Source of the DNA: Saccoglossus kowalevskii
Lineage: Eukaryota; Hemichordata; Enteropneusta; Harrimaniidae
Assembly: GCF_000003605.2 (NCBI RefSeq)
Contig: NW_003154742.1
Span: 204,430 to 268,429 of the forward strand
Direction of reading: 5' to 3'
Length of the DNA stretch: 64,000 nt
The notes under the pieces were generated by a model. The model searched no databases. It was given only the letters and a program-made list of their open reading frames with translations, and was not told where the DNA came from. Of this stretch, positions 1,416-62,920 are shown in pieces (the first letter of the stretch is position 1; the number at the start of each line of letters is the position of its first letter). Position numbers and translations under genes: made by a program.

Positions 1416-2390
1416 TTAAATAAAATTACATATCTCGTTCCTAAGTTTCAGTACATGAAAGATGTATGCAGCCAGTGGTTGTAAAATGTCAGAAATTTGA
1501 GAAGTAACAAGATCTATAGATTTATCAAAAGACGAGGTATTATAAAATGTACTGGGTAAGTACGAGGTTCGCAATTCATGGTAATATGGGCAAACAAGGA
1601 GAAAGTGAAACTCATTTTCAATTTCATCTATGTCACAAAGAGGGCAATTACTTTTGTCTCTCTCAATTACACCACGATCTCTTTCAATGCGAAGGCAGTA
1701 AGAAGAAAATCGTGCAAGAGCTACTCTATGGGAATAAATTCCAACAGATTTTAAGTATTTTTCCGGCTGCAATGTAACCTTAAATTCCCGATATGGAACC
1801 AGTTTGTCTAAGGAACAAATATCAGTAAGCTTACAAATTGAATATTGCCAACTTTCTGCAAATACCAAACATGTTCTAATTTACACAAAAACAATAGTTT
1901 CCTTATATCTGTCACCCAGGTAGGTTTCACCCTCACCCCGATTTGTCCATGTTATGTTGTAGTACTTACGTGGGTTTCTGTTACTTGGCATATTGATGAT
2001 TTTAGCCCAATATTTGATGCATCGTTTTGCGGCGTACAAGAAAATAGGGTATCTTCCTCACTCGCCCAGTGCACAATTGTTAGGTGATAGTGTCGACATA
2101 TCTGCAAGCAAAGTATTGAATACGTTCCAGACACTCACATTTTTTAAACCCCCAGACCTCCGAACCATAGGTTAAAATAGGTAAAATCATGGAATCAGAA
2201 ATGAAGAATGAATGATAATTTAAAGGACCAATTTTTCTAGTATTTTTCATAATAGCCATAAATGCTATTTTAGCTTGTTGTGCTAATGACTTCGTTGCAG
2301 GTGTCCACTGTAACCGACATGATAATAAAATTCTCAAATATTTGTAATATTAGACACCCCCAGGAAAAAAATGAATACCATAATAGTATG
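1416..2390 (-). pseudogene. LINE reverse transcriptase, C-terminal region
   Basis: Two open segments, 2337-2080 and 1868-1416, plus a broken join upstream near 2390-2340 (KYL-type residues before LQWTPATKSL). The first holds the motif PILTYGSEVWG, typical of the region after the RT thumb in APE-class LINEs. The second holds CPLCDIDEIENEFHFLLVCP, the cysteine-bearing C-terminal segment of the same polyproteins. The segments are in different frames, so the ORF is broken at least twice here. Confidence 0.8.
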
Positions 2391-2712
2391 GATATCGTTG
2401 AGGTAGGAATGCGATATCAAACATACAGAACGAGAGGATGTCCCTCTGGAGAAATGACCCTTACAACATAATATAACCTTCTAAAACCTTTTGTAATGAA
2501 ACAAGTGTGCGATATCAGCACTGAGTTTTAAAATGGTATAGCCCCCTCCCCCCATTGATACGCAGATTTTGTGGAATTCGTCATCCGCACCTGGATGCAT
2601 CTTAGTTTTATACAACCAATCAAGCCACGGGCATTTGGTATTCATAATATTGAAGTTGTTTGATTGGCTACGTAATATCGGCTGAATGTGTTTATAAATG
2701 CAAAATCACACA

Positions 2713-3830
2713 TGACCAACTTCCCCAGTTCTCATTGACGTGCATCGTGGAGAGATTGAAGCATATCCCACTTTCTCGGACGTTTCCGACGATGACCTGA
2801 TAGAAGCAAGCTGAATATTTGAATCAGCTCGGGTTTGATAATGTCGATAGTGAACCGGGTACTGTTCCACAAGTAAGTATTTTCTCACTTCGGTGACTAC
2901 AAATTCCAGATTGGACGGTTTTGCAACCCAGTGTCAGATTCTGCTGTGCGGGCCGTCGCTAAGATTCCAAAAAACACAAGGCGACGACATGTGGGCTCTG
3001 CGTACTTTTAATGAATGGTATGAAATAACACCCGACTGGTATTAACGACTGATGAAAAGGTGAAAAGTAATGCCCGTCGTGGACTTAGCTTATTAGGTGC
3101 CAAAGTGTATGGAAATTGTTATCCCCCCAAAACATTGTTATCTTTGATCATGGATTTGCAAAGCTACCGTTGTTCTGAGCTGCAAACACCTCTAAATGTT
3201 CTAAGTGATAAAGAATTTCAGGGTTTTCGTCAAGTGCTCGATTCAGAAATGAAAAGATTGCCCAGTTTGGGGTTGGGATCAAAAACAAAACATGCTGAGG
3301 TAATTACCAAAGACCAAACCGCGTTACTGTGGGAAATGAAGCTACTAGGAGACTATTCTCCCCCGGGTTCTTGTTCGCACTATGGTACTTCTAAATGGCA
3401 AACAAAAACACACAACACCGAGCTCTACGTATTGACCCACTCCAAATCACTTTACACGAGTCACCAGGTGAAATGCCTTATTTGAAGTATGTGGAAGACG
3501 TGTCGAAAAGCAACCAAGGTGGTCTAAAGCATCGCAGAGTAAGACAAAAGGAAGTAATGCATTATGCAAATACTGAAACCCCCAACAATGGCATATTAGA
3601 ATGTACAAGAATACACATCACTCTGCCCTCCGGAGGGAAAACAAAAGCGGCTTCGACCTTACCAACGGAGTGTCATTTCAAAGGCATGATATCGGAAATG
3701 CCACGAGACGAAATCGAGTGTTACTTCCGATATCATGTCGAGAGTATGGCAGGTCTATAATATCGCCCATTCCATTCAAATATCGAGTTGGAGGTTGTTA
3801 TTTAAAAAAAAACCTCAAAGTATATTGTTA
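2713..3830 (+). pseudogene. Crypton-derived (DUF3504, ZMYM/QRICH1-like) recombinase relic
   Basis: On the strand opposite the LINE, translated pieces follow the order of the DUF3504 family, the Crypton tyrosine-recombinase-derived domain also found in vertebrate KCTD1/QRICH1/ZMYM proteins. An acidic N-terminal piece (FSDVSDDDLIEAS) lies near 2755-2815. A PKNTRRRH/WALRTFNEWY-like segment follows near 2965-3025. The core ARRGLSLLGAK...EFQGFRQVLDSEMKRL...LLWEMKLLGDYSP is at 3066-3365, and, after a frameshift near 3390, HRALRIDPLQ...PYLKYVEDVSKSNQGGLKHRRV is at about 3415-3540. The catalytic arginine/tyrosine set cannot be assigned safely. Frameshifts and stops make it non-functional. A donor-like GTAAGT at 2871 may be chance. 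It interrupts the LINE, so it inserted later or was brought in by rearrangement. Confidence 0.7.
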
Positions 3831-3849
3831 TTTTGCGTATGAGGTGTGT

Positions 3850-4321
3850 ATAGTTCAATAGCCAGTTCATTGACGAAGAAGGAAACTTGGAAGGAACTCA
3901 ACATACAACCTTAGCGGACACCAACTGGACAGTCAAAGCATTCCGTATACTGATTCGATGTTCTAATACACAATCTAACATTGGAGTAAATACTAGCGGA
4001 ACGGACAATTTTTCCTATCACCCCACCCTTTATCAAAATATGCCATAGTTGCTGTCTCTCTACCATGTCAAAGGCTTTGGAAAAATCTACAAAAACACAA
4101 TAGAATTTCCCTCTTTTACGAGTGATGTATTTTTGTACCAAAGACTGTAGAATAAAGATATTATCAATAATTGAGTGCCCGTGCCAAAAACCTGTCTGTG
4201 CTTCATTTATTTTGCCAAGAGCCTCCGACCAATAGTAGAGTCGATGGTTCAAAATAGAAGTGAAAATTTTACCAAAAATACTAAGTAAAGAAATTGCCCT
4301 ATATATTCCCTGGGTCATCAA
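3850..4321 (-). pseudogene. LINE reverse transcriptase, palm region
   Basis: The longest intact RT piece (4321-3911, 136 codons) contains YRAISLLSIFGKIFTSIL, QTGFWHGHSIIDN and VFVDFSKAFD, the last carrying the first catalytic aspartate of the RT palm. Immediately downstream the GVRQG motif is broken: the expected glutamine codon is TAA near 3908. The frame then continues as GCMLSS...VNELAIEL to about 3850, where similarity stops at the Crypton-derived insertion. The YADD box is not present in the window. Confidence 0.85.
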
Positions 4322-4633
4322 CCGGGCCTTTTTATATAAACTGGGACAATAGTCGCTTTTGACCAGATAATTGGGAAAAATTGAATTAAAAAGAATATTT
4401 AGATGGTTCTGCAGACTGTCTGAGCCTGCTGATTTACCGTTTTTGATATGTTTCAGTCTTTCATGTATCTCGTCATCTGAGATACGACCATTGAAAATGT
4501 ATCACTAGATTTCCATATCACCTGGAAGAAAAATAGTCAACTTTAATGATTGAACTTTCCAGGTCGTTTGCCAAAGCAAAATCATTATTGGATTCATTTT
4601 GTGAAAAAAGGGTACTGAAATATTCAAACCTTT

Positions 4634-5014
4634 TTAGAGGATTATATTAGATGAGTTGCGAAACAAACGTAACAACCTGTATTTTTCTGCTTTCAGTTTT
4701 TTACACTCCAAATCAAACCATGGCGGTTGTTTTCTAGACTGACTGTATACCTTACGTAACATGCCGCTTTTATCAACAGCAGGACGTATTACATCCATAA
4801 ATACATCAACAAAGACATCAATATTAAAACCCGGGGTTTCTATAAAACTATTTAGATATTTACCACAAGAGTCATTTTCTAGATTTTGAACAACAGAATT
4901 GGAATTTTCTGGCTTCCATATATATTGTGTAAAACTACTAGTATCTTCTGTGTTGTCAACAGCAACGGTTGATGGTAATCCGTGTTGAATTGGCATTTTA
5001 AATGAGAGTGGCAT
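4634..5014 (-). pseudogene. LINE endonuclease-RT linker
   Basis: A 126-codon open segment between the endonuclease and RT pieces. Its C-terminal half (KQPPWFDLECKKLKAEKYRL) is the conserved PWxDxEC..lr..kr linker seen between EN and RT in many jockey/CR1/I-type polyproteins. It shares the strand and orientation of the neighbouring LINE pieces. Frames break on both sides. Confidence 0.7.
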
Positions 5015-5307
5015 GTGGTTAGATTCAGCACGCGATACAATTTTTTTTTTATTTTAGAAAACAAGGATGACGAAACTAGAACCATTACTAGAAAAACATG
5101 TAAAATCACCAACTACAGTGTCATCACCAGACCTACCATTCAACACATGCAGATTGAACGTACAACATAACGAAACAAGTGACTGTCCAAACAGATTAGA
5201 AAAAGTGCTTTTGAGGAAAGTGGAATGTTGAAACTATCAGCATTATATATTGGAAACTTGTTTAAAACAAATGTCACGTCGTCGTTGACAATAAAATCTG
5301 GCTGGCT

Positions 5308-5765
5308 TCAATCAATTATTACATCACCTTCACCTAATTTAGACAAAATAGTCACCAATTCACTTTCCAACAATTCAGTACCATTTTGTGATTCAAGTCT
5401 ATTATACACAGTGGAGTTTTGTGGAGGGATATATACGTTGCAATAGAGAATGTCTCTATCTGAATGAATTATTTTTTTTCTAAATAAGAAAAACAAGCAA
5501 TCATGTAAACTTGATTGAATACTTTCAGTATAATTCACAATCTCATTTCTCATAAGCGTCATAACACCTCCAGCAAAACGACCACGTGTTGATGTACGAG
5601 AACGATGTGTTTTATCAAACACTTTAAAACCAGGAAAATTGGTGTTCGTGTTCAGCCCATGTTTCGGATAAAGAAATAACATCAAATGATTTGAGGAAAT
5701 GAACGAAATCAAGTGAAATAAGTTTGTGTTTAAAACCTCTAACATTCCAAAACAAACAGTTTAAA
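5308..5765 (-). pseudogene. LINE AP-type endonuclease
   Basis: Reading from about 5765, the frame WNVRGFKHKLISLDFVHFLK...ISLSETWAEHE carries the N-terminal N of NVRG and the ETW glutamate typical of LINE APE endonucleases. A frameshift near 5640 moves the reading into the 145-codon open segment ending at 5308. That segment continues with GRFAGGVMTLMRN, an RxxGGV motif, then a NVYIPPQNS-type strand and GDVIID, the GDFN-like position. The order and spacing fit a whole but broken endonuclease domain. Confidence 0.8.
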
Positions 5766-6520: not shown

Positions 6521-9500
6521 ATGGCCGGTCGTGATAATAGTCCAGATTTCTTCATAACTGGGGGTCAAAACACAACAGAATGGGTCGAAGAAATCGCTCT
6601 TTGGCTAGAGAAGCATTACGACTTAAAGGGGAAGTATAGCGAGCGCGATTTCATCGGTGGACGCCCGGTACTTGACCAAATAACGGATATGATCAAGACA
6701 TGTAGGTGCACAGTTGTTGTTTTTGACGTTAGAAGTCAGTGGGCAGACTACACCGCTAAAGCGGCATTACATATGATCACCGAGGGCAACTCCAGTGACA
6801 AGAAGCAAGTCATTATTGTCATAAAAAACAAGTTGGCTGCAAGAAATGTTCCAGACTGTTTTCAATGTTACAAATTTGTAAATGCGGATTATGAGAACTT
6901 TTATGAGAAGTTATTTGATAGTATAACATACACCAGACCCAAAGTACAACGCAAGCTGGACAGAAGCGTCTCTAGCCACGAGCCGAAACAAGAAACAAGA
7001 ACAATACAGGACACTAGTAAGTGATCTTTTCAGAATTATTTTACTCATTACACTGTTAAATAAACATTAATCGGGGACATTCCAACTGCAATTTCCCAAT
7101 GTTGCATAGCTATAGTACATATAAATGTATCTTCTGTATCATGTTACCATGCTAATGACCCGTTTTAAAATAACGCGTATCTCTGTGTATTTCGCGCCGG
7201 GTTCCGCACAACTGTCATGCAAACATGAAGTCGGGCTTTGTTACTCACATTCGTAATGCCAGGCAGTAATTCCACAAGATATAGGTAATGTGCTGTGTGC
7301 TAGTTCATTCAAACATGTTGATTTTATACACATGCATACCTCATAAATTTTTCTCAATACAATGTTTGTGTGTACATGGAGGTAAAAAGAGAAAGAATCA
7401 CAGCCAAGTTTAGATCAAATGTACCAGGATGATCGCCGCTGTTTGTACATAGATCAGGGAGTTTATTTGCCGAACGGACCAAGGAGGACAGTTCCCATTA
7501 GCATAGTGAGGATTATCATGTATTAGAATATTACGGACGCCTTCGGCAGCGCTCTGTGATTTTCGTGACAATTCGAGTCAAATTCTTATAAACAAATATG
7601 GCGACAATCGATAGCGCCCACGAGTTCAACTACGATGCTGAAGCAGCTATATCCTTCAATTCAGAAGACGTAAACGAAATCGAAGAGCATATTACACACG
7701 AAGAAATGTTTTGCATATGCTGTGAACGAAACGATCGCTCGAAAACAGCGAATGCTGCGAATTCATTGTACATTGTGTATAACAAAAATTGACACACTGC
7801 CACAGGATGTATGTCCATCCACGGGATATAAATTTCAAAAAGTGTCATTTCAAACATCACAATTCAGTATCTGGTACAACGCGGTGCGGTCCATGTCATG
7901 CATCATTACAAAGATCATTAAACGATTCCTGCAAGTATAAAGGTGTGCGCATGCTTAATGTCCTTTGGCATTTACTGCGAGACCGTAAAACAAGACCTTG
8001 AAATGTGTGCTTTACCTCAGACAAGTAACACAACAGACTGACAACGCGGCGTTTTCTTTTGAAGTAAAGCGTGCTGCGTACGTTATAAGTTCTTATTTTG
8101 TTTTGTCTTACCACCGTATACCAGACAGGGTTTGTCATGTATATTTTTTTTTCAGGGGGGATTTTGTTATCTGCTCTGAATCTTTTTCTTTATTGCGAAA
8201 TAAAAAAAAAAAACTATTAAAAAAAACGAGTGAACAAGATTATCACAAAATAACGCAAGATCTATTCATATTCCAATCAACTAACGCGAGACATACTAGT
8301 CGGTATTTTTTATTACCTCCATGACCACACCGAAATTCGAAAATGACATTTACGGAATAATTAGCGAATCTGAAGACGATAGTTACAAACAACGCGTATA
8401 ACACGTACTATGAAGTCGAACTCGACAAAAATAACACACCCCCAGTTTTAACCGATAACCGGCTTATGCTGATACGCTGAGAGATATCATGTATTAGTAT
8501 ATGAAAACCAGCTATCCCATGTTTCGGTACCCCGGAATACACACAAAAACTGTCAACTTACAAAGTGGTATGATCGCTCGAAATGCAGCAATATGCCCTT
8601 CCCGAAAAAATGTCGGAAACTTTCCGCAAAATCTGCAACAGTGAGAAATATGGTTTTAAAGTTGCTCATTATATATTCAAAAACTATTTGAGGTATATAA
8701 GACATTCAGTTACTTGTAACTCACCAATATAAATGATGGTCGATTCTTAAATTTCGTACACAGCTGCAAAGGTCAAAATGTCCAGAACGCATCTCCCGTT
8801 TTTTAAAAATGTCCGGATCCGTTCTAGTAGAGTGACTGTGGTTTTACGAAGAAGCGCGATATATTTCGACGGTGTCTATGTCAATACTACCGAGCACGGC
8901 ACACGTAGCAAATACAATTAAGCCGATTAACACCTTGAACAATAGGCGTTGAAAGTCTGTTGTATTACTAGTCTGAGACTGTACGCAGCAACGCTTGAAG
9001 CTAAATTACGCGTCGGCGACGATCCTGGGGTGAAAGGACCATAAGACAAAGGGAATTTTGGGATTAAACTTGACTAAAACAAAAGACGTTTCTTTTTACC
9101 TCCATGGTGTGTACGAGCAAGTCATTGTTATTAGGCAACCTGACCAATGAACAATGGTAGACGGTGTTCTTGTTCATCAAGAATATTGTTATAATCGAGA
9201 CTGTATTTCAAAAAAAATGTTGGCTAATTGGAAAATAAAAATGATGTCATAGGATTCATTTATGTTTGAGGATATCTAACTTATTCATATTTTTTTAGAT
9301 ACCGTTGACCGCGAACAGAAGAAATCGCTGAATAGACTTTCCTCAAATGTTGCTAACATGAGCCTGGATTCAAATAACACAGCTTCTAAAGGTAGTGTGT
9401 GTGTGTGTGTTAGCTTAAATGGCGACAGTCGTCGCGCCGCGTCATGTTCGACATGGGTCCCGTATACAACGCGTGTAAAATACATTGTTTATTTAACATG

Positions 9501-12500
9501 AAATTCGAACACGCGCTGCGTGACGACCACCGCGCTTTATGGTTAAGCTAAGGTGGTGGGAAAGGTGTTATGGCATTTCAGAATAATGAATTATCTGTCT
9601 GTTATCTCATTCGAAATCTTTATTAGATATTGTAATTCAAAACCCAGACACTAAACATAGTAGATTTGGAAGGGGTCCCAGTGAGATCCGTTCCTCCAAA
9701 AATGTGTAGCGACTTATAATGTTGAATGGGGTAAACCAATGTCAAACATGCTAATGCTGATTCACAGCATTAGTAGCGTTCACGCACAACGTCTTAGCGT
9801 GAACGATTAGCATGTACGGATTAAATACCCGGTCCAGATAACTAGCTCGGGCTATGCGCTAAAAAACATTGAATTCAATGTTCATTTCGAAGATTTACTA
9901 TTATATTCATAAATATTCAGCAATTTCTTTGCTATTTCCTGCTATTCTGCAATCCACAATTTCTCGATTTGCTTTGTTATTATTTGATAACTGCAGAACT
10001 AACATGTACACCTCCTAGTTGCTGTATTGAATAATCATAGTATAAATGACTGAAGAGTTGTGTATATGTATAACAAGTTTGGACGTTCCTTAACCCGTGG
10101 CAACCACTGCCCCCCCCCCCCCGGTGCGTGAATGCAATTGGGCCCATCCAATATGCACCATATTGGCTTATTAGATTAGCTTAAATTTTAGCTCCTACTT
10201 GCTACCACGCTTACTAAAAAACCGTGTTGCTACGTTCACATGACAGCATTCTATCGGATCCGAACTACTGCCCCCCCCCCCGATTAACATGAGATTATCT
10301 CTAATGCGCCAGTCGGGAGCCAAACGAGAGCCAAAGTCAGCAATAGTTCAATCTAGTTCAATTAGAGCCGAAAGGAACAGTGCCCTCAAATAATTAGTAT
10401 GAAAACAACATGGCTGAAAACAATTTTAGCGTCGTGCTTGTATTGTTGTTTCTTTGTATGGCACGCTGCTGTTGACCTGGGGGGGGGGAGAAACAGTCAC
10501 GAGTCTGAGACAATGCACTAGTGTTATAATTTAGATATCTCGAATAAACAGGAGAAAACGCTAACTGTGTTACAGCCTATTCGCTTAGTTATTGTCATGC
10601 TAAAATTACTATCTTGTAAATTTTCAACTGTTGTGATATGTTTAACAGTAACGTAAACCTAGTAGGAAAAACGTCGCCGTAACGTGACCGCTTCTCGCTT
10701 CTACGATTATTATCTTTGGTGTCTTTAAAAAAGTTTCTTAAATTTCCGTTGGATCTGTCGTCCTTTCAAGTTTTTGTCACATAATTTTCTTTTTCCCGTT
10801 GAGCTACCAATCTATCGCAGTATTTATTTACTTTGTCAAATAGATATTAGAGCGCGTACCTTTTCATCAAACAATTACGTGAAATTACAAACGATGACAA
10901 ACGATCTCAACCATACGAATTTACTTGAAGAAGACGATTAAGGTAGAGATGCAGTTTTCCTGACAGGTATTTTAATTAGTTAATTAGGAAACCAAGATGA
11001 CCTCCCTTGTCCACAAAACTATATATTTCGGAAAGCGTATTGTATGAATTTTAAAAAAATTTTAGTATTTTATTTTTATGGACACTGTAGTTTGAAATAT
11101 GCACAACAATGTGCTTTTTTGGTCAAAAGTGATTTAAAAAAATAGCTCCTAAACCATGCTTCTGTTTCCTTTCAAAATTGGTTAGTGGGTACATCTGTTT
11201 ACTATGAAGAATCGCCGTCTTGAAAACTGTCTACCAGTTGTCAATTTTGCAGGGCAGCAGCCCAAATTTTACTACTTCAAGTTTATGCATAAATTAACAC
11301 CCAGGCTAGTTGTCCGTACGATTGTTGTAACACTGTTCAACCAAAAACAATGCCCCGACGGCGTTTTGAAGATAAACACATTGTCAATCAATTGTGAAAA
11401 TGTCAAAGCGTCTAGGAGCTATTTTTTTTTAAAGTTCTGGGATGTGCACTAAAAGAAGCTGAGATAATTTCTAATTTGTATAACAATTCACTCAGTAAGT
11501 TTGCTAATGCTCATAATTAAAATGGCTGTAACAGTTTCAAATTTAAATGTATTATCGTTTTGTTAAAAGTTAAATATAGTGCATAATATGGAGATCCCGT
11601 CATTTTTTTTTCATCATGTTTCTTTTTTTATTATTTATGTACAGCCTTGCTAAATCTTGATTAGCTTTCAAAAGAGATAATGTTTGCACCTGTTATCTAT
11701 ATTTTAAAATCGTTTTTTGAGTATGTTTCACTATTCACAATTCTACAAAATGTTAACAGTCTATTGCCAAAACTGTTTGGATAATAAAAAGCAAAAAAAA
11801 AAAATTCACTCCCAAGTGCCCACAAACACCTTATCTCTACCTTAAAGGCATGGTTTCCGATAGTTGGGCCCAATGCGTATACACGGCTTGTTGGTATGCA
11901 TTTTACTAACGAACAATTTTTGTTTGTTCTTCGTCTTAATCAAAATTGAACGCGCCCCGCTGAGGTGGCATTTCCTAGATTGTTGTTTCGCAAATATGTG
12001 TTCAATAGTTAAATTTGACAAGATGGCTTGCCGCGGTAGTTTTGTAGATACTGCCGCCAACGCAATACTAAGCAAAATTCTTATTTGAGAGAACATATAC
12101 ATACTAGTAGTTTTTTTTAATCTACACTCATCTATACAATTACAAAAATGATATATGTAATGTTTATTTTTTCATACCAGGCGAAGCAAAGGTGCAAAGG
12201 AAAAGTGAAAATGTCGAAAATAAACATGTGGCTCCCGTAGAGGAAACGTGCGTTGTTGCCTTCAAAGGTAGTTTAAACAAGTCAAGTAAGATTATGTCAG
12301 GGGTTGTTTCCTGGCTGCTGGTTTCGAGGGGGCTGAGTGATTAGTGACATAATTGTATTTTTCTGTTATTATCTAGGGGTATAACTGACAAGTCGTGCTA
12401 GGTAGTTTACAACTAGCCAGAATTTTGTTCTCTTTGAAGATTTGACAGGGAGATCTTCAATTTTGAATAAGAGTGCAAATTCCTTTTCAATTCTGAAATA

Positions 12501-14800
12501 GTTTCTAATTGTTGACAGCAATCATTAATCGAGCGCTATTTTGTTTAGATCAGCCAAGTTGTAATGTGGTCGGAGTGAGTTCAGCTTGTAATTGGTAAAA
12601 CAAAATGCAATGATCTACCTGTGCTAAATAAATGCCTATATCGGGAGTGCCATGTAATTCACGTAGGAGTAGTTTTGTTCCACTCACCATCCCGGGGTTA
12701 TCTATACAGACAAATTAACATTATTCAAATAAAAAGTAGCAAGCACTTTGCAATCAATGGTGTTCTAAATAAGATGGGCCAAATATCAAATGAGTCGTAG
12801 TATTAGTATTATTTTGTGTGAGTGTGGTGAAAGTTGGAGAACCCCTCGCATCGAAGTTTCTATCTGGTTCTAGAAACGTCGCGGTGTCGGGGGTTCTATA
12901 TTATTGACCCTATTTATTGAACGAGAGTTAAACGTATAATTTGTTCCAAGCCTAAATGAGGAAGAAATTACATTTAGAACATAATACAAATTTACGTCCA
13001 TATAAGCATTTTATCAATATATTTTCCTTATTTATCAGAACCTGAGTTCCTCCCAAAAAATGAGCAAGGTGACGATGACTCTGGCATGTATGAAGAAGGT
13101 ATGTCTGAAACTATCATGCAAATATGCATTACATGAAGTGGGTCGTTACTAGCATAGTAAATTTGACGGGGGTCACAGTGAGATAGTTCTAGTCATTATT
13201 AAAAGTTGGGAAAACATATCGAAAAAGTGTAGCAACTATTAAATATGAATGATTTGCTCTAATTTCAGAACAAAATTAGAAAATTTATTGACCAGTGCTA
13301 CTGCAGAATATATTAATGTTGTTAAATCATTGATTTCATACCTAAACGTGCAAATTGAAGAAGTGGGTGGGGCTTGTGTAAGTTGCCAGTGATATATTAT
13401 CCGTTATGTGACTATAATAATCATTGGATAATATATTGTCAAGTATTACTGTTACGCAACATTCACTGACTGTTTACATATAGTCAATTAGGTATACAGT
13501 TTAGGCAAACATCATGCACAGCCATAGCAGTAGTAGTCTGTTCAATGCTAGCACCAAACAAAATGTTATTTATCTATGTAGTGATTAATCTAAGATTAAA
13601 TGCAATACCAAGCAAAATTCATATTTGAGGAAAAATCACTCATACATTTCGTAAACCTACATTCAAGCATACAATTATAATTACTAATTACAAAAGGTAT
13701 TTATGTGATGTCTACTTCTTCATACCATCCAAAGAAGAGTTGGGAATGAAAAGCGAAAATGTCGAAAATAAACTTCAGCCATCTGTAGAAGAATCAGGTA
13801 GGCGTGCTTTGTTGTTTTGAAAGATAGTTTCAATCAGTTTTCTCCCGAAAATCCGGCCAGTTCAGTACTCACTGTCTTCTGGTTTCTTGGCTTGATGTAT
13901 ATTTATATTGTTGTCCTCGTACGGTTATCCATAGTGACTGTCGATACCATGCTCAATTGTTGAATACATTAATTTTATTGAGCATCGTGAGTTGGCGAGG
14001 TTTCACGACATACTTTGAACTTAATAGTGATATTACAAAACATTAATTCCATAGAGCATTAAAAAACATTACATACAAACAGGAAGCAATAGGACGTAGT
14101 ATTTACTCACTGAAGTATATAAATGTTGCCCTCTAAAATATTAGTAACCTGGGTACTAGGAAAATCGTTAACAGCTCGAGCAAAGTTCACGTGAGCAGAT
14201 CATTAAATAGTATCACGAATTTTACCAGCGACAGTTACCTAGGCATATAATAAACGAAGAGGAGTCATTGTAACTCTGCCGAAATGCATTGGTATAATAT
14301 CATGTTGGCCTGTTTAGTGCAAAATATATATATTGGGGGATCTCAATAGCTAAAGACAGACAGTACTGATAAGACATTGTTTAAATGTGTACTGTCATCA
14401 TTTGAAGCATGGCAGTAAGCAGAGCTTCATTGGTGAAATCCTGGCTAGACAAATCCCCCGAGGTTTAATTGCAAGCTAAATTCCTGATACATCATGACCA
14501 AACATAAACTACCCAAGGCCTAACACCTCTCCACCCGAAATTGACATTTTCCCCCTTTAGTTCTATGTACACAAGGTGTAAATTACTCTGTTTTTTCCAT
14601 TTTATTACTTTATATTGGCAGCCTCAAATTCGACAAGTAAATAAAAGAAAAGGCCGATTATTTTCTGATTTGTCAGCTAGTTTTAGAACCACCCAAATTG
14701 TGTGACATAATAACAATTCCTAATACATTTTCATTATTTATCGTCAAATATCACAGATAAAGATGAGCAACCCCGAGGTGAATCTGGCATGTATGAATAA
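6521..14800 (+). CDS. TIR-domain protein, six exons, 280 aa
   Basis: Exons join as 6521-7016, 9299-9391, 12181-12267, 13039-13098, 13735-13797 and 14757-14800 (TAA). Each intron is GT..AG and phase 1, and the exons sum to 843 nt, an exact reading frame. The ATG has an in-frame TAA at 6491 upstream. Residues 9-137 form a TIR domain: box 1 DFFITG (9-14), box 2 RDFIGGRPVLDQI (42-54) and an RSQW segment (71-74). The catalytic glutamate of NAD-cleaving TIRs, expected about four residues after the tryptophan, is threonine (78), so a scaffold role is more likely than an enzyme. I see no signal peptide, membrane segment, death domain or repeats other than the tail. Residues 138-280 are charged and low in structure, and two tail modules repeat: KSENVENK (204-211 and 251-258) and SGMYE (240-244 and 276-280). 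In animals TIR domains relay Toll/IL-1-type signals in the cytosol; that role here is inferred. The splice model has no transcript support. Confidence 0.8.
7017..9298 (+). other. TIR gene intron 1, with decayed coding debris
   Basis: A 2.3 kb intron. At 7598-7792 an ATG-started 64-codon frame has an acidic N-terminus and a CICC motif, and overlapping frames to about 8001 are rich in Cys and His (CHRMYVHP..CHFKHH..CGPCH). A second acidic start lies at 8322-8400 (GIISESEDDSYK). I recognise no family. The pattern looks like a frameshifted transposon or host-gene relic. The rest is AT-rich with homopolymers. Confidence 0.35.
9299..9391 (+). other. TIR gene exon 2
   Basis: Acceptor TTTTTTAG at 9291-9298, donor GTAGTG from 9392, 93 nt, encoding residues 166-196 (polar, rich in Ser/Asn/Lys). 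The phase-1 entry and exit agree with exon 1, which ends at CTA|GTAAGT (7016/7017), and with exon 3. A short GT microsatellite runs straight out of the donor to 9409. Confidence 0.75.
9410..9551 (+). mobile_element. TTAA MITE, family A, copy 1
   Basis: The ends read TTAGCTTAA (9410-9418) and TTAAGCTAA (9543-9551). Inside are imperfect inverted ends: GACAGTCGTCGCGCCGCG on the left, and on the right a reverse complement reading GCGGTGGTCGTCACGCAGCG. The centre holds ATGGGTCCCGTA. The same order recurs at 20414-20508 and 62811-62920, and in degenerate form at 60864-60975. TTAA at the ends suggests piggyBac-type mobilisation. It lies 18 bp after the exon 2 donor of the TIR gene. Confidence 0.75.
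9552..10938. other. TIR gene intron 2, left part with C/G tracts
   Basis: Non-coding. Contains the segment shared with intron 4 (about 9655-9740), two long C tracts (10110-10122 and 10271-10281) and one G tract (10479-10488), all within 380 bp. No gene is seen. Confidence 0.6.
10939..11845 (+). mobile_element. TTAA-bounded element of about 0.9 kb
   Basis: TTAAGGTAGAGAT begins at 10938/10939 and its reverse complement ATCTCTACCTTAA ends at 11845. TTAA at both edges plus an inverted GGTAGAGAT end suggests a non-autonomous piggyBac-like insertion. The inside (including a plus-strand 82-codon frame at 11204-11452) has no recognisable protein. It explains part of the size difference between introns 2 and 4 of the TIR gene. 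The inverted end is short, so confidence is moderate. Confidence 0.5.
12839..12897. repeat. Imperfect hairpin in TIR gene intron 3
   Basis: AGAACCCC (12839-12846) pairs with GGGGTTCT (12890-12897), and GTTTCTA (12856-12862) pairs with TAGAAAC (12871-12877). This gives a two-step stem of about 59 nt with bulges. It could be a minimal MITE or a structured intronic RNA; there is no evidence for either. Confidence 0.5.
13390..13436. repeat. 11-bp inverted repeat in TIR gene intron 4
   Basis: ATATATTATCC and GGATAATATAT face each other across about 23 nt. It is AT-rich and may be incidental. Confidence 0.4.
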
Positions 14801-15281
14801 GGTATTCTAATTATTAAAACAATGGATGTTAAATTTAATTGTTTATTGTTCCCACACCGTAGAGCTTTACAATGTGTATTTTAATAACATGTCATATTTC
14901 TTTTCACTTTCAGTTGACAACACGAAATGAATCACTAAATGCCCCAGAATACCATTACTGTTATAAGTCCACACTTTATGTGTCTATCTTCTTTACTTTT
15001 TTTACACTTTTCTAAGATATTTTATAAATGCCATTGTGATTTTTGGTAAAAGGAGAAGACCATGCTCTCAGATAAAACACCACAAACGTTACAGAATGTG
15101 ATTAACTGTTTTATATCACTTTTTATGAGTATTATGTCAACCATCTTGATTTATTGTTTTTCCGGTCTCCCCTTTGAAGATTTTCTTTATAATTACTTGA
15201 CAACGCCTTGACGAGGTTCATATGCTTGTTTTAACGATGATACATTTACCTTGATTTGAATGATTTTCTAGGATGAATAAA
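14801..15281 (+). other. TIR gene 3'UTR and poly(A) signal
   Basis: After the TAA at 14798-14800 comes a donor-like G|GTATTC (14802) and, at 14912-14913, a good acceptor (TTTCACTTTCAG), so the 3'UTR may contain a short intron. AATAAA at 15276-15281 is the first clear poly(A) signal. These are sequence predictions only. Confidence 0.45.
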
Positions 15282-20413: not shown

Positions 20414-20508
20414 TTAAAGCGCGGTGGTCGTCGCGCAGCGCGTGTTGGAATACGTCGCTATGAGTCCCATATCGAACAGGACGCGGCGCGACGACTGCCG
20501 CCCTTTAA
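20414..20508 (-). mobile_element. TTAA MITE, family A, copy 2 (short)
   Basis: A 95-bp unit bounded by TTAA at 20414-20417 and 20505-20508. The ends are AGCGCGGTGGTCGTCGCGC and, inverted, AGGGCGGCAGTCGTCGCGC. On the minus strand it aligns with the 9410 copy from end to end, but lacks about 40 bp of the middle. Its centre is GAGTCCC, where the 9410 copy has GGGTCCC. Confidence 0.8.
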
Positions 20509-33549: not shown

Positions 33550-34214
33550 NNNNNNNNNNNNNNNNNNNNNNNNNNNNNNNNNNNNNNNNNNNNNNNNNNN
33601 NNNNNNNNNNNNNNNNNNNNNNNNNNNNNNNNNNNNNNNNNNNNNNNNNNNNNNNNNNNNNNNNNNNNNNNNNNNNNNNNNNNNNNNNNNNNNNNNNNNN
33701 NNNNNNNNNNNNNNNNNNNNNNNNNNNNNNNNNNNNNNNNNNNNNNNNNNNNNNNNNNNNNNNNNNNNNNNNNNNNNNNNNNNNNNNNNNNNNNNNNNNN
33801 NNNNNNNNNNNNNNNNNNNNNNNNNNNNNNNNNNNNNNNNNNNNNNNNNNNNNNNNNNNNNNNNNNNNNNNNNNNNNNNNNNNNNNNNNNNNNNNNNNNN
33901 NNNNNNNNNNNNNNNNNNNNNNNNNNNNNNNNNNNNNNNNNNNNNNNNNNNNNNNNNNNNNNNNNNNNNNNNNNNNNNNNNNNNNNNNNNNNNNNNNNNN
34001 NNNNNNNNNNNNNNNNNNNNNNNNNNNNNNNNNNNNNNNNNNNNNNNNNNNNNNNNNNNNNNNNNNNNNNNNNNNNNNNNNNNNNNNNNNNNNNNNNNNN
34101 NNNNNNNNNNNNNNNNNNNNNNNNNNNNNNNNNNNNNNNNNNNNNNNNNNNNNNNNNNNNNNNNNNNNNNNNNNNNNNNNNNNNNNNNNNNNNNNNNNNN
34201 NNNNNNNNNNNNNN
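33550..34214. other. Assembly gap of 665 N
   Basis: A run of 665 Ns, a size that suggests an estimated scaffold gap rather than a fixed placeholder. The flanks do not repeat each other. Confidence 0.95.
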
Positions 34215-36155
34215 TATCAGTTTAGAACAACCTGTGGGATTTAGGAAAAATTGTCATCATCAAGTTACCGGTGCCTATTGGATACGATATCATATGATGA
34301 TATTACGAGGTTACACCATGAGTATGCACGTAGACATTACTGCGGGAATATTGAGAGACACAATAAGTCATCTTCCCGGTCAAACTACCTCATATGTGAA
34401 GCCCAGTACTCAATGAAATAGCAAATATATGAACTTCATATGAACACCTCTACCATTTTGTTATACCATTGCTTTAGTCATTGAGTATTTAGATTTCGCG
34501 TCACCTAATAAGGCAGATACCTAGCCCGTTGTCATTTATGGGGATACAATGCTAAATTTGTGAGGATTTGTAAGCTACGTTGTCACTCATGTCTAGATCA
34601 GTAGTATGTTTGAGAATAACCGGGTCGCAAAGCTTTTGAGAATTTGTAACCCCATGAATAAAGACCTTCAAGATTCGCATCTGCGGCGGCTTCGCGGGTG
34701 ACAACAACGAGGATGACATCACCAATATCATGTTCCCATAGTGTTAGGTATAGCAATGTAAAAACTTGAAAATCAGACGTGCTACCTTGTATAAATGTAT
34801 TCAAAGGTACCAGAATGGCATGATCTCAAGCATTGCATGCAACTAATATGAAATTTGCATATTCAAAGCTCGATCGTTGCAACGCCTTGATTGAAAAGAA
34901 AAAAAAAACGTGAAACACGACTGAGTTGTATGTGATGTTTTGTGCAGGCACCCCATAGCCCCACATTGAAATATGCACGGTAGCCTTCATTATCCACTGC
35001 CTCTTTGCGCCAGATAGTCACGGGCTTATGGTCAACTTAATGATAAAAGAAGGCTTCTTCACAAATACATTCGGGATGTATGTCTCCTTTATTTAAATGT
35101 CAACTTATGTCATTCATCCTGCTTGAGTGTTATATACTTTAGAAAGTGATAAGTGAATTCCAAGATTTGTTTAGTACCGTGACTAATGTACCTATTAACT
35201 TACGGTGTTTGTGGAAAAGCGATTTCTCACCCATGGCAACTATATTGGTGTTAATCAACATAGTGCAGTTTAATCGGCAGTGAAGTGGTGGTCGGTACCA
35301 TCAAAGCCATGATCGGTAGACCCGAGAGAAAATCATATATTTGGGGTGCAATGCCAACAATGTACCAACCACTACACTTACGCTTGCAGACACAGCGGTC
35401 GTGAGAAATGCATTGTATCAGTGATATTCAATGTCTGCAACTGTTACATAAGTGACAAAAGCATTCTTACAATAAATGTTTGTTTAACCACATGACTGCG
35501 TGGTGGATCTACTGAACGTACTGACATGGGTGTCAAAACAATTTGATGACCTTCGCATTAAATTTATTAATTATTATCATCGCAATAATTATTTCATATA
35601 CATACTAATCACGTATGTATCCAATATATTGTCAGTAGTAGAACTGGTTGAAGAACGTAATTAGATCATGTCCAAGAAAGGAAACGAAATTGTCGGTTGC
35701 GTGTTTACGTGTATGTGTGTGATGTGGTATTAAGATGACGTTATTTTGAAGCAGCGAAATGACGTTTATCTTCATCATTGTTCTATTTCAATTGACAGTT
35801 CATTTCATAGGCAGCTTCTTTTATTATTCAGTCTGATCTCTGACAACTCCGAGATTAGCTGACTGGATTGCGAATGAAATGTGACTCGCATGAAAACATA
35901 ATTGGTAATTTGAGAAAGAGTAGAATAGCGTTTAATGTAACAGACGCGAATTCCAATGACGTGGCGGCTGATTGCGATTATCGTCAACGAAATGCTACAA
36001 AAGTTATATTCCAGTCTGCCGTCATGCATTGTAATGTCCTACACGTTATTACACTGAACAAACAGACTAGTCATTCACAAACCCCCAAATTTTATATAGG
36101 TACATGCAAGTTGATATGTTCATAGATATTTATAAGTAATTCACATAAAACAACA
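34215..36155. other. Intergenic DNA downstream of the GPR19-like gene
   Basis: No gene recognised. Short open frames on both strands (for example 34598-34804 and 35805-36125) show no domain. Confidence 0.5.
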
Positions 36156-36702: not shown

Positions 36703-37872
36703 TTATAGATATGTGTCTGGTCCAGGTCTGGCAGCCAGCGGCCAGGCCATTTTCTTGTCACCTTTCGAGTCTCTATCAAATGTTTTGGTTGGCGTACTCG
36801 CACGATAATGTCCATTTCCATTGCTCATGTCGACTACACCGATATGGTTCTTTTTGCCGAACCTAGAGGCGGTTGTTATGGCATATGTGTTACTACGGTA
36901 GCATCGCATATTGGACATGCAGAACACTTCTTTGCAACCACGTCGGAAATTTGCATTATAGCAAGAGTAAATGATGGGATTAGACACACTGGATGCAAAT
37001 GAGACCCAGGTTACGGCAACGTACACTGTTGGGTTGATGTACGTGGAGTGTGAACAGGCGAACCACAGCTGTACAAAGATGAAAGGCGCCCAAGATAGAA
37101 AATAGAATATATTTACAATAGAAAGCATTTTGATTGTCTTAACTTTAGTCCTCGGAACCGTGTTCATTGTCCTCTGGAATGTCCTGCCACCTACCCCTAC
37201 AGTCCAAATATATTTAAATATTCTTATGTAAACCACCAGAATGATAACAACCGGTACGAGAAAGATAATCAGAAATATGAACACAGAGTATATGATAGCT
37301 CCAACGCTGCGTGGAATGTACGTGTTACACAATATAGTACCAGGGGGGTAGTCTGATGTCACGGCGCCGTACAAGTAGAATGACGGGCTGGCGATTATTG
37401 CGGCGAACAACCAACTGCCAGCGATCATCTGTTTGGCTTTCCCGCGAGTGACTTTGAAGCTGAGTGGGTAGATTATGGTGTAGAACCGATCGAACGCGAT
37501 AGCCAGGAGTACATACACGGTGGAGCCGGGCGCCAAGATTTGTAAAAATCGAACTATCTTGCACATAAAATCACCGAAGATCCATTCCTCGGTGACAACT
37601 CTGGACGCGATGAACGGCATGCAAAAAAACGCAACTAGAAGATCGGCCCACGCTAGAGAGACAACGAAATAATTAGTGGTGCTCTGCATCCGACGGCTTC
37701 GATACACCACCACACACACCAAGGTATTTCCGAACACACAGCCGATCCACATGATACACAGGGTTAGCATCTCCAGGATGACATTGGTAGAAGTCCGATA
37801 AGGGTCTTGCCAGTCGTGCACATCCGTGCTGTTCATAGTAGCCATGCTGAAACTAGGACTGTTCGTAGCCAT
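36703..37872 (-). CDS. GPR19: GPR19-like orphan G-protein-coupled receptor
   Basis: A single-exon, intact 389-residue rhodopsin-class receptor; human GPR19 is close to this length and is also encoded by one coding exon. TM1 is about 31-56 (GN at 48-49), TM2 66-88 (Asp77), TM3 105-127, TM4 149-171, TM5 190-216, TM6 246-270 (FLSWAPF) and TM7 282-304 (NPIIY at 298-302). Cys104 and Cys182 can form the usual loop disulfide. Asn14 (NST) is an N-glycosylation site. The DRY motif is DRF (128-130), as in GPR19. Family-specific blocks include RRMQSTTNYFVVS, FYTIIYPLSFKVTRGKAKQMI, TMNTVPRTKVKTIKML and YNANFRRG, plus the tail CYRSNTYAITT and AWPL near the C-terminus. It is expected at the plasma membrane. 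Vertebrate GPR19 is an orphan for which adropin has been proposed as ligand, not settled. The ATG follows GAAGAA. Confidence 0.93.
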   Translation of the reverse strand: MATNSPSFSMATMNSTDVHDWQDPYRTSTNVILEMLTLCIMWIGCVFGNTLVCVVVYRSRRMQSTTNYFVVSLAWADLLVAFFCMPFIASRVVTEEWIFGDFMCKIVRFLQILAPGSTVYVLLAIAFDRFYTIIYPLSFKVTRGKAKQMIAGSWLFAAIIASPSFYLYGAVTSDYPPGTILCNTYIPRSVGAIIYSVFIFLIIFLVPVVIILVVYIRIFKYIWTVGVGGRTFQRTMNTVPRTKVKTIKMLSIVNIFYFLSWAPFIFVQLWFACSHSTYINPTVYVAVTWVSFASSVSNPIIYSCYNANFRRGCKEVFCMSNMRCYRSNTYAITTASRFGKKNHIGVVDMSNGNGHYRASTPTKTFDRDSKGDKKMAWPLAARPGPDTYL

Positions 37873-38027
37873 TTCTTCAAAGACACGTCATAGGTTTAAT
37901 GCCAGCAACAGGAAATAGAATACTATGTTACGTCGGATGCGTGTCGCCTATCATCAGCGTTGGCGGTTCATCTTGTCAGACGTTGCCATCGCTAGTCACC
38001 ATGATAAATCACGATGGGGCTGCTTAT
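37873..38027 (-). other. GPR19-like 5'UTR segment ending at a splice acceptor
   Basis: Reading the minus strand, a pyrimidine-rich TTTATTTGTTTCAG is followed by ATAAGCAGCC at 38027. The coding exon therefore probably begins here, with 155 nt of 5'UTR, and the promoter lies further right behind an intron. No upstream exon can be chosen from sequence alone. Confidence 0.5.
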
Positions 38028-62810: not shown

Positions 62811-62920
62811 CCAGCCCCATAGCGTGCGTTCGTACGTCGTGGAAACAAACAAGGCTTTTTACACGCGTGTCATGGGACCCAAATCGTACACGACGCGGTG
62901 CGTCGACTGTGACACTTTAA
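62811..62920 (-). mobile_element. TTAA MITE, family A, copy 3
   Basis: Read from TTAA at 62917-62920 on the minus strand it gives CAGTCGACGCACCGCGTCGTG, then TTTGGGTCCCATG, then ACGCGTGTAAAA, in the same order as the copy at 9410. The far end is decayed. Confidence 0.7.

What the first reader, a model, noticed from the sequence alone, without database searches (positions are those of the whole stretch)
12181..14800. Tail of a TIR protein built by recent duplication of a two-exon module
Exons 3+4 and 5+6 are homologous in coding sequence and in flanking introns, and all boundaries are phase 1, so the duplication kept the frame. It doubles two short linear motifs (KSENVENK and SGMYE) in a disordered tail behind a TIR domain. 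The serine-glycine-x-tyrosine-acidic motif in an acidic setting could be a docking or modification site; its retention in both copies suggests it matters.
Basis: partly seen in the sequence, partly recalled or inferred. Interest (0 to 1): 0.75.

Follow-up and report, generated by a model that had tools for sequence, protein, structure and literature searches.

The report
Old exon-pair duplication in TIR gene
In what looks like an animal gene for a small TIR immune-type protein, a pair of short exons was copied side by side long ago; the copying is real but not recent, the second copy shows wear, and nothing here shows that the doubled motifs do a job.

Summary
The duplication is real: exons 3+4 and 5+6 match in order, and 0 of 200 shuffles reached the score of either exon pair. 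It is not recent: beyond the exons, similarity covers only about 120 nt upstream of exons 3/5, 60 nt upstream of exons 4/6 and a few tens of nt downstream of exons 3/5. The 681- and 834-nt intron interiors match no better than shuffles.

Exon ends are not homologous: three junctions moved, each by a multiple of 3, so all stay phase 1. Copy 2 looks worn: its acceptors rank 76th and 73rd of 426 AGs (copy 1: 3rd, 4th), and exon 6 stops where exon 4 has GAA. A relic donor follows, then a strong acceptor (2nd of 426) opening VDNTK-stop.

Exons diverged as much as adjacent intron (K 0.29-0.32 against 0.28-0.35); constraint on the motifs is not firmly shown. The genome-wide search found the module only here. 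Probably a non-enzymatic TIR-only protein with a disordered tail; ordinary.

The parts
6521..7016 (+). exon 1: start codon and TIR domain (residues about 8-130), ends phase 1 at CTA|GTAAGT
   Evidence: Pfam TIR_2 E 1.1e-6; TLR TIR structures, best E 8e-5; donor
9299..9391 (+). exon 2 (candidate), 93 nt, phase 1-1
   Evidence: acceptor rank 34 of 426, donor rank 37 of 522: mediocre; no credible homologue in the two paralogous loci (best E 1.4)
12181..12267 (+). exon 3, copy 1 of the first module exon (KSENVENK); an alternative in-frame donor after 12285 scores higher (6.9 against 5.1)
   Evidence: acceptor rank 3 of 426, donor rank 27 of 522; homologous to exon 5
13039..13098 (+). exon 4, copy 1 of the second module exon (DDDSGMYEE)
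   Evidence: acceptor rank 4 of 426, donor rank 4 of 522; homologous to exon 6
13735..13797 (+). exon 5, copy 2 of the first module exon; where copy 1 has its acceptor CAG this copy reads CAT, and the next AG (AAG, 6 nt downstream) would be used
   Evidence: alignment; acceptor rank 76 of 426, donor best of 522
14757..14800 (+). exon 6, copy 2 of the second module exon (GESGMYE-stop); TAA where copy 1 has GAA
   Evidence: acceptor rank 73 of 426
14914..14930 (+). candidate exon 7: VDNTK-stop, phase 1; can be joined to exon 4 directly
   Evidence: acceptor rank 2 of 426; translation
14799..14807 (+). relic splice donor AAG|GTATTC overlapping and following the exon 6 stop, matching the donor AAG|GTATGT of exon 4
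   Evidence: score 3.4 against 8.7; alignment
12059..12277 (+). block A, copy 1: about 120 nt of intron, exon 3, about 10 nt beyond its modelled end
13599..13833 (+). block A, copy 2: about 135 nt of intron, exon 5, about 36 nt beyond its modelled end
12973..13102 (+). block B, copy 1: about 65 nt of intron and exon 4 to the first bases of its donor
14682..14805 (+). block B, copy 2
15276..15281 (+). AATAAA, first such signal after exons 6 and 7

Best explanation
An old tandem duplication copied a phase 1-1 two-exon module (KSENVENK exon plus acidic SGMYE exon) in the tail of a TIR-only gene. Shown: the homology, its limited extent, the open frame, and the differing splice positions. Inferred: the ancestral gene ran from exon 4 to a terminal exon like exon 7 (VDNTK-stop); after the duplication the intron interiors turned over beyond recognition, and copy 2 lost its original acceptors, now relying on the next AG downstream, and gained a stop (GAA to TAA) just before its donor. 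This direction of change is judged from site strength alone, as no outgroup was found. Copy 2 is now either a weak, optionally spliced alternative 3' end (two motifs, 280 aa) or a decaying one, beside the single-module form 1-2-3-4-7 (one motif, 250 aa). Function, inferred: a TLR-like TIR without the catalytic glutamate acts as a non-enzymatic TIR-TIR binding adaptor or modulator, and the acidic disordered tail is a flexible arm with, at most, one or two weak peptide motifs.
For: Homology of both exon pairs, 0 of 200 shuffles each. No intron-interior similarity, and no match of the interiors at E 1e-3 in 334,584 sampled bases of the same genome, so very common repeats do not explain their loss. 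Splice scores: exon 3, 4 and 7 acceptors rank 3rd, 4th and 2nd of 426 AGs, exons 5 and 6 rank 76th and 73rd. Three junctions shifted by multiples of 3 (arithmetic). TIR: Pfam, TLR2/TLR15 structures. At Trp+4, where the TLR structures have Glu, this protein has Thr and its two nearest paralogues have Ala. Tail hydropathy 0.346 lies below the disorder boundary 0.436.
Against: No transcript data, so which exons are spliced is unknown. The splice scores use recalled human-like frequencies, not those of this species, and penalise acceptors whose AG lies a little beyond the pyrimidine tract. Exon 5 has the best donor of all 522 GTs in the gene, and exon 3's donor only ranks 27th, which speaks for real use of copy 2. 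Frame keeping at three moved junctions (chance about 1 in 27 if the junctions are right) also speaks for use, but the junctions were partly chosen for frame, and exon 3 has an alternative donor. Unalignable interiors could also come from local deletion and replacement after a younger duplication: the blocks themselves differ by only K 0.28-0.35. In the last alignment two 40-column bins after exon 4 (78% of 32 and 75% of 20 columns) lie above the 62% of unrelated pairs.
Confidence: 0.6

Rival explanations
1. One reading: one constitutive six-exon transcript whose tail carries two selected copies of a docking or modification motif (SGMYE in an acidic setting).
For: Phase 1 throughout, open frame of 280 aa. 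Exon 5 donor is the best in the gene. Clustered identity over KSENVENK, p 0.006. Exons and their acceptor-side flanks stay alignable while the intron interiors do not, as expected if both copies were kept as exons.
Against: Flat codon-position pattern, dN 0.29 against intron K 0.28-0.35; weak copy-2 acceptors; strong unused exon 7 acceptor and relic donor; the second copy's surroundings changed (DDDSGMYEE against GESGMYE-stop).
Confidence: 0.25
2. Exons 5-6 are dead relics (pseudoexons); the gene makes only 1-2-3-4-7 or an even shorter form.
For: No AG at the exon 3 acceptor position in exon 5 (CAT for CAG), moved and weak acceptor in exon 6, a stop, degraded last donor.
Against: No internal stop or frameshift in the aligned core of copy 2, although 70% of simulated placements of the same number of changes make a stop; that is only p about 0.3. 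Excellent exon 5 donor.
Confidence: 0.3
3. The acidic D-S-G-M-Y-E segment is a phospho-regulated degron of the beta-TrCP type (works-like claim), so a second copy would raise turnover of the TIR protein.
For: DSG followed by a hydrophobic residue in an acidic tail predicted disordered; variant beta-TrCP motifs with acidic residues at the first positions are described (PMC10721886, passages).
Against: The last position is Glu, not the Ser/Thr of the motif searched in that paper; copy 2 has ESG; six-residue resemblance only.
Confidence: 0.07
4. The exon calls are an artefact of by-eye gene modelling, and the repeat is a non-coding duplicated segment in the 3' part of a TIR gene.
For: Exon and intron blocks diverge alike; no codon-position signal; no credible homologue of the tail in Pfam or the PDB.
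Against: Copy 1 acceptors 3rd and 4th of 426, exon 4 donor 4th of 522, phase agreement, no indels within the two aligned exon cores (56 and 42 columns).
Confidence: 0.1

Closest known systems
Tandem exon duplication (internal, frame-symmetric exons)
   Same: Neighbouring homologous exons with the same phase at both ends, so copies can be added, skipped or swapped in frame. Passages of PMC9741552 describe tandem duplicated exon substitution events as ancient in most cases and present in about 1% of human and fly coding genes.
   Different: Here the unit is a pair of exons, in a tail predicted disordered. Substitution splicing (one copy or the other) is not shown, and the second copy ends in a stop.
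Animal TIR-only proteins
   Same: A TIR domain with no other domain found. [quoted passage not shown]
   Different: This one has a Thr where TLR-type TIRs have the WCxxE glutamate, and an orphan acidic tail not found near its two nearest paralogues.
SARM1-type TIR NADases
   Same: TIR domain by sequence.
   Different: The glutamate needed for NADase activity (E642 in SARM1, PMC7282519 passages) has no counterpart; its equivalence to TLR Trp+4 is recalled, not computed here.

Membership tests
tandem exon duplication | adjacent exons homologous beyond chance | tested here: met
   0 of 200 shuffles for both exon pairs
tandem exon duplication | symmetric phases, so that copies are interchangeable in frame | tested here: met
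   all modelled junctions phase 1; the seven exon combinations printed all translate in frame
tandem exon duplication | both copies spliced into mRNA | not testable with these tools
   no transcript data
   both copy-2 acceptors and the exon 3/5 donor differ in position; read as drift after the duplication
TIR domain protein | curated TIR profile score | tested here: met
   TIR_2 29.6 bits, cut-off 28
TIR NADase | catalytic glutamate | tested here: not met
   Thr at Trp+4; Ala in the two nearest paralogues; Glu in L007 and L011; equivalence of the position to SARM1 E642 is recalled
beta-TrCP degron | [D/E/S/T][D/E/S]Gxx[S/T] (form given in PMC10721886 passages, there followed by Q) | tested here: not met
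   DSGMYE and ESGMYE end in Glu (sequence)

The most novel reading that the evidence does not exclude
Phase-symmetric module copies let splicing set the number of short acidic SGMYE motifs (0, 1 or 2) on a catalytically dead TIR protein, a valency dial on an innate signalling adaptor: exon 4 to exon 7 gives one motif, exon 4 to exons 5-6 gives two, exon 2 to exon 7 gives none.
Probability: 0.12. Interest if true: 0.45.

Novelty: new member of a known kind. Interest (0 to 1): 0.22.

Why it matters
If both forms are made, the gene would be a compact case of tail-motif number changing by splicing in an innate immune adaptor. As evidence stands, it is a useful example of how an exon duplication ages: introns dissolve, splice sites wander by multiples of three and a stop is gained, while the short motifs survive.

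Tried and rejected
Single-sequence AlphaFold2 of exon 1 gave mean pLDDT 37.5 and was not used. Tail against Pfam and the PDB: nothing credible (Sulfotransfer_2, E 0.064, 13.8 bits, cut-off 22; Utp30, E 0.06). A 32-nt match between intron 2 (9656-9687) and intron 4 (13153-13184) was considered as a sign of a wider duplication; its score of 44 equals the best of 300 shuffles, so it was left unproven. A terminal exon for copy 1 at 13269 (acceptor score 7.1, stop after three codons) was considered as a homologue of exon 7; no alignment supports it. A transposon origin of the interiors got no support in 334,584 sampled bases, most of them from this contig, so only very common repeats are excluded. 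The species was not identified: the one search meant for it did not complete.

In the codon counts, the first codon or two of the 22 exon 3/5 codons lie at or before the modelled start of exon 5; the last two codons (stop and Gly) were dropped before the NG86 and the simulation. Searches used ends of exons 4 and 5 that were off by one, and therefore printed a wrong spliced translation; the right ends are those. I first drew block A by eye to 12291/13847; BLAST carries it only to 12277/13833, and the parts list follows BLAST.

The genome-wide protein search of the tail matched exons 3, 4 and 5 of this locus only and missed exon 6 as a match of its own, so it cannot exclude diverged modules elsewhere. 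In one search the readings of L008, L009 and L010 were taken on the wrong strand and were not used; one search shows them by tblastn.

Full report
Setting. The gene begins at 6521 with a TIR domain (Pfam TIR_2, E 1.1e-6, above its cut-off; best solved relatives TLR15/TLR2 TIRs, E 8e-5). Eight places in the genome match the TIR at E up to 0.001, this one included (16 candidates scored). The nearest are 41% identical (C4410:184556, about 26 kb upstream) and 39% identical (C258:73635).

The observation. The self-comparison finds three direct-repeat families, 12138-12245/13686-13793 (76%), 13056-13102/14759-14805 (79%) and 12059-12096/13599-13636 (84%). Local alignment against dinucleotide-preserving shuffles gives 0 of 200 for exon 3/5, exon 4/6, the acceptor-side intron of exon 3/5 and that of exon 4/6. 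It gives 72, 117 and 71 of 200 for the start and the middle of introns 3/5 and for the sequence after exons 4/6, and 111 of 200 for the earlier parts of introns 2/4. BLAST carries the first block from 12059/13599 to 12277/13833 (70% over 235 columns). The interiors also fail in a global alignment (-51 against a shuffle mean of -60.5, sd 14.9). In binned alignments around the blocks most bins outside them show 55-69%, like unrelated stretches aligned the same way (62%, sd 2.4% over whole stretches); exceptions are one bin just behind block A (12291-12326, 75% of 32 columns) and two after exon 4 (13184-13250, 78% of 32 and 75% of 20 columns).

Age. Divergence (K2P) is 0.28 in the intron upstream of exons 3/5, 0.32 in the exon 3/5 core, 0.51 in the 46 nt after that core, 0.35 upstream of exons 4/6 and 0.29 in exons 4/6. 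Neighbouring intron interiors have lost all detectable similarity, and they match nothing at E 1e-3 in 334,584 other bases of this genome, most of them from this contig. So I read the duplication as old, with remains around the exons and their acceptor sides. Turnover by local deletion and insertion after a younger event cannot be excluded.

Splice anatomy. The modelled exons are 6521-7016, 9299-9391, 12181-12267, 13039-13098, 13735-13797 and 14757-14800; all junctions are phase 1 and the reading is 280 aa. The exon ends are not homologous. Copy 2 has CAT where copy 1 has its exon 3 CAG, so its first AG is 6 nt further. Around the exon 3 donor, copy 1 lacks 8 nt that hold the copy 2 donor, and measured from the shared core its own donor lies 18 nt further. 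In exon 6 the acceptor lies 15 nt nearer the aligned coding core than in exon 4. Each shift is a multiple of 3 (chance 1 in 27 if the junctions are right, which is not certain: exon 3 has a better-scoring, also in-frame donor after 12285).

With recalled splice-site frequencies, among the 426 AGs of 7016-15200 the acceptors of exons 3, 4, 5 and 6 rank 3rd, 4th, 76th and 73rd; among the 522 GTs the donors of exons 3, 4 and 5 rank 27th, 4th and 1st. So copy 2 is weaker at its acceptors, not at its first donor. Exon 6 stops at TAA where exon 4 has GAA. The bases at that stop still read AAG|GTATTC, like the exon 4 donor AAG|GTATGT. At 14914 the second-best acceptor of the gene opens VDNTK-stop in the right phase. 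The first AATAAA after it is at 15276. I read exon 7 as the ancestral last exon.

Selection. Over 37 aligned codons the mismatches fall 12, 8 and 8 on the three codon positions. On the 35 codons kept (stop and last codon dropped) NG86 gives dN 0.29, dS 0.45; 18 codons differ and 16 of these alter the protein, against 17.6 expected from random placement (p 0.25). The KSENVENK run (26 nt with at most one mismatch) is longer than shuffles give (p 0.006); the SGMYE run is not clearly so (21 nt, p 0.08). There is thus no firm protein-level signal; the persistence of exons and acceptor flanks against lost intron interiors is the better argument that the exons were kept as exons.

Elsewhere. The tail was found only at this locus in the genome (3 matches at E up to 0.001, all here; short exons limit that search). 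Within about 20 kb downstream of the two nearest TIR paralogues the best module-exon match has E 0.18, and over the rest of contig C4410 and the other fetched loci none is better than E 0.33 (E-values depend on the bases searched). The tail has no credible Pfam or PDB match.

Function. Where the TLR alignments have the WCxYE glutamate the protein has Thr, and the two nearest paralogues have Ala. The glutamate is needed for NADase activity in SARM1 (PMC7282519, passages); its equivalence to this position is recalled. A non-enzymatic TIR-binding role is therefore inferred, in line with TIR-only proteins acting with LRR-only partners in Hydra as cited in PMC8609888 (passages). The tail is predicted disordered by charge and hydropathy. 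SGMYE resembles beta-TrCP motifs only in part (PMC10721886, passages). A Src-type SH2 site (YEE) is a recalled possibility without a test.

Verdict. A real, probably old, frame-keeping duplication of a two-exon module in a TIR-only gene, with a worn second copy and a likely alternative ending. It is a new case of a known kind (tandem exon duplication; PMC9741552, passages). Paper searches (listings only, apart from the four papers cited by passage) were made for background; without the species no claim that the gene is absent from print is made.

Noticed in passing
window 36703-37887, minus strand: Single open frame of 394 aa for a rhodopsin-type GPCR (7tm_1, E 6.7e-53); recalled resemblance to GPR19.
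   Followed up: partly
window 1416-5760, minus strand: Broken retrotransposon remains, of non-LTR type by recalled resemblance: a reverse transcriptase piece at 3911-4501 (RVT_1, E 2.7e-11); three neighbouring open pieces match no Pfam family.
   Followed up: partly
window 9415-9540 (intron 2): Dispersed repeat, also at window 20415-20508 and 62821-62910 and beside both nearest TIR paralogues (L016, L012).
   Followed up: partly
window 11227-11407 (intron 2): 181 nt at 94% identity to L008 820-999, near another TIR match: a second dispersed repeat.
   Followed up: no
L004, L005, L006 TIR domains: A small TIR subfamily with W-x-[DN]-Y-[TA] in place of the WCxxE glutamate motif, while L007 and L011 keep Glu.
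   Followed up: partly
G000 C4202:46371-46733 (L009): A TIR match is listed in an open frame of 9,244 aa; this may be an effect of masked N, and was not examined.
   Followed up: no
window about 33550-34215: Run of N (gap or withheld stretch), seen as X in the translations.
   Followed up: no
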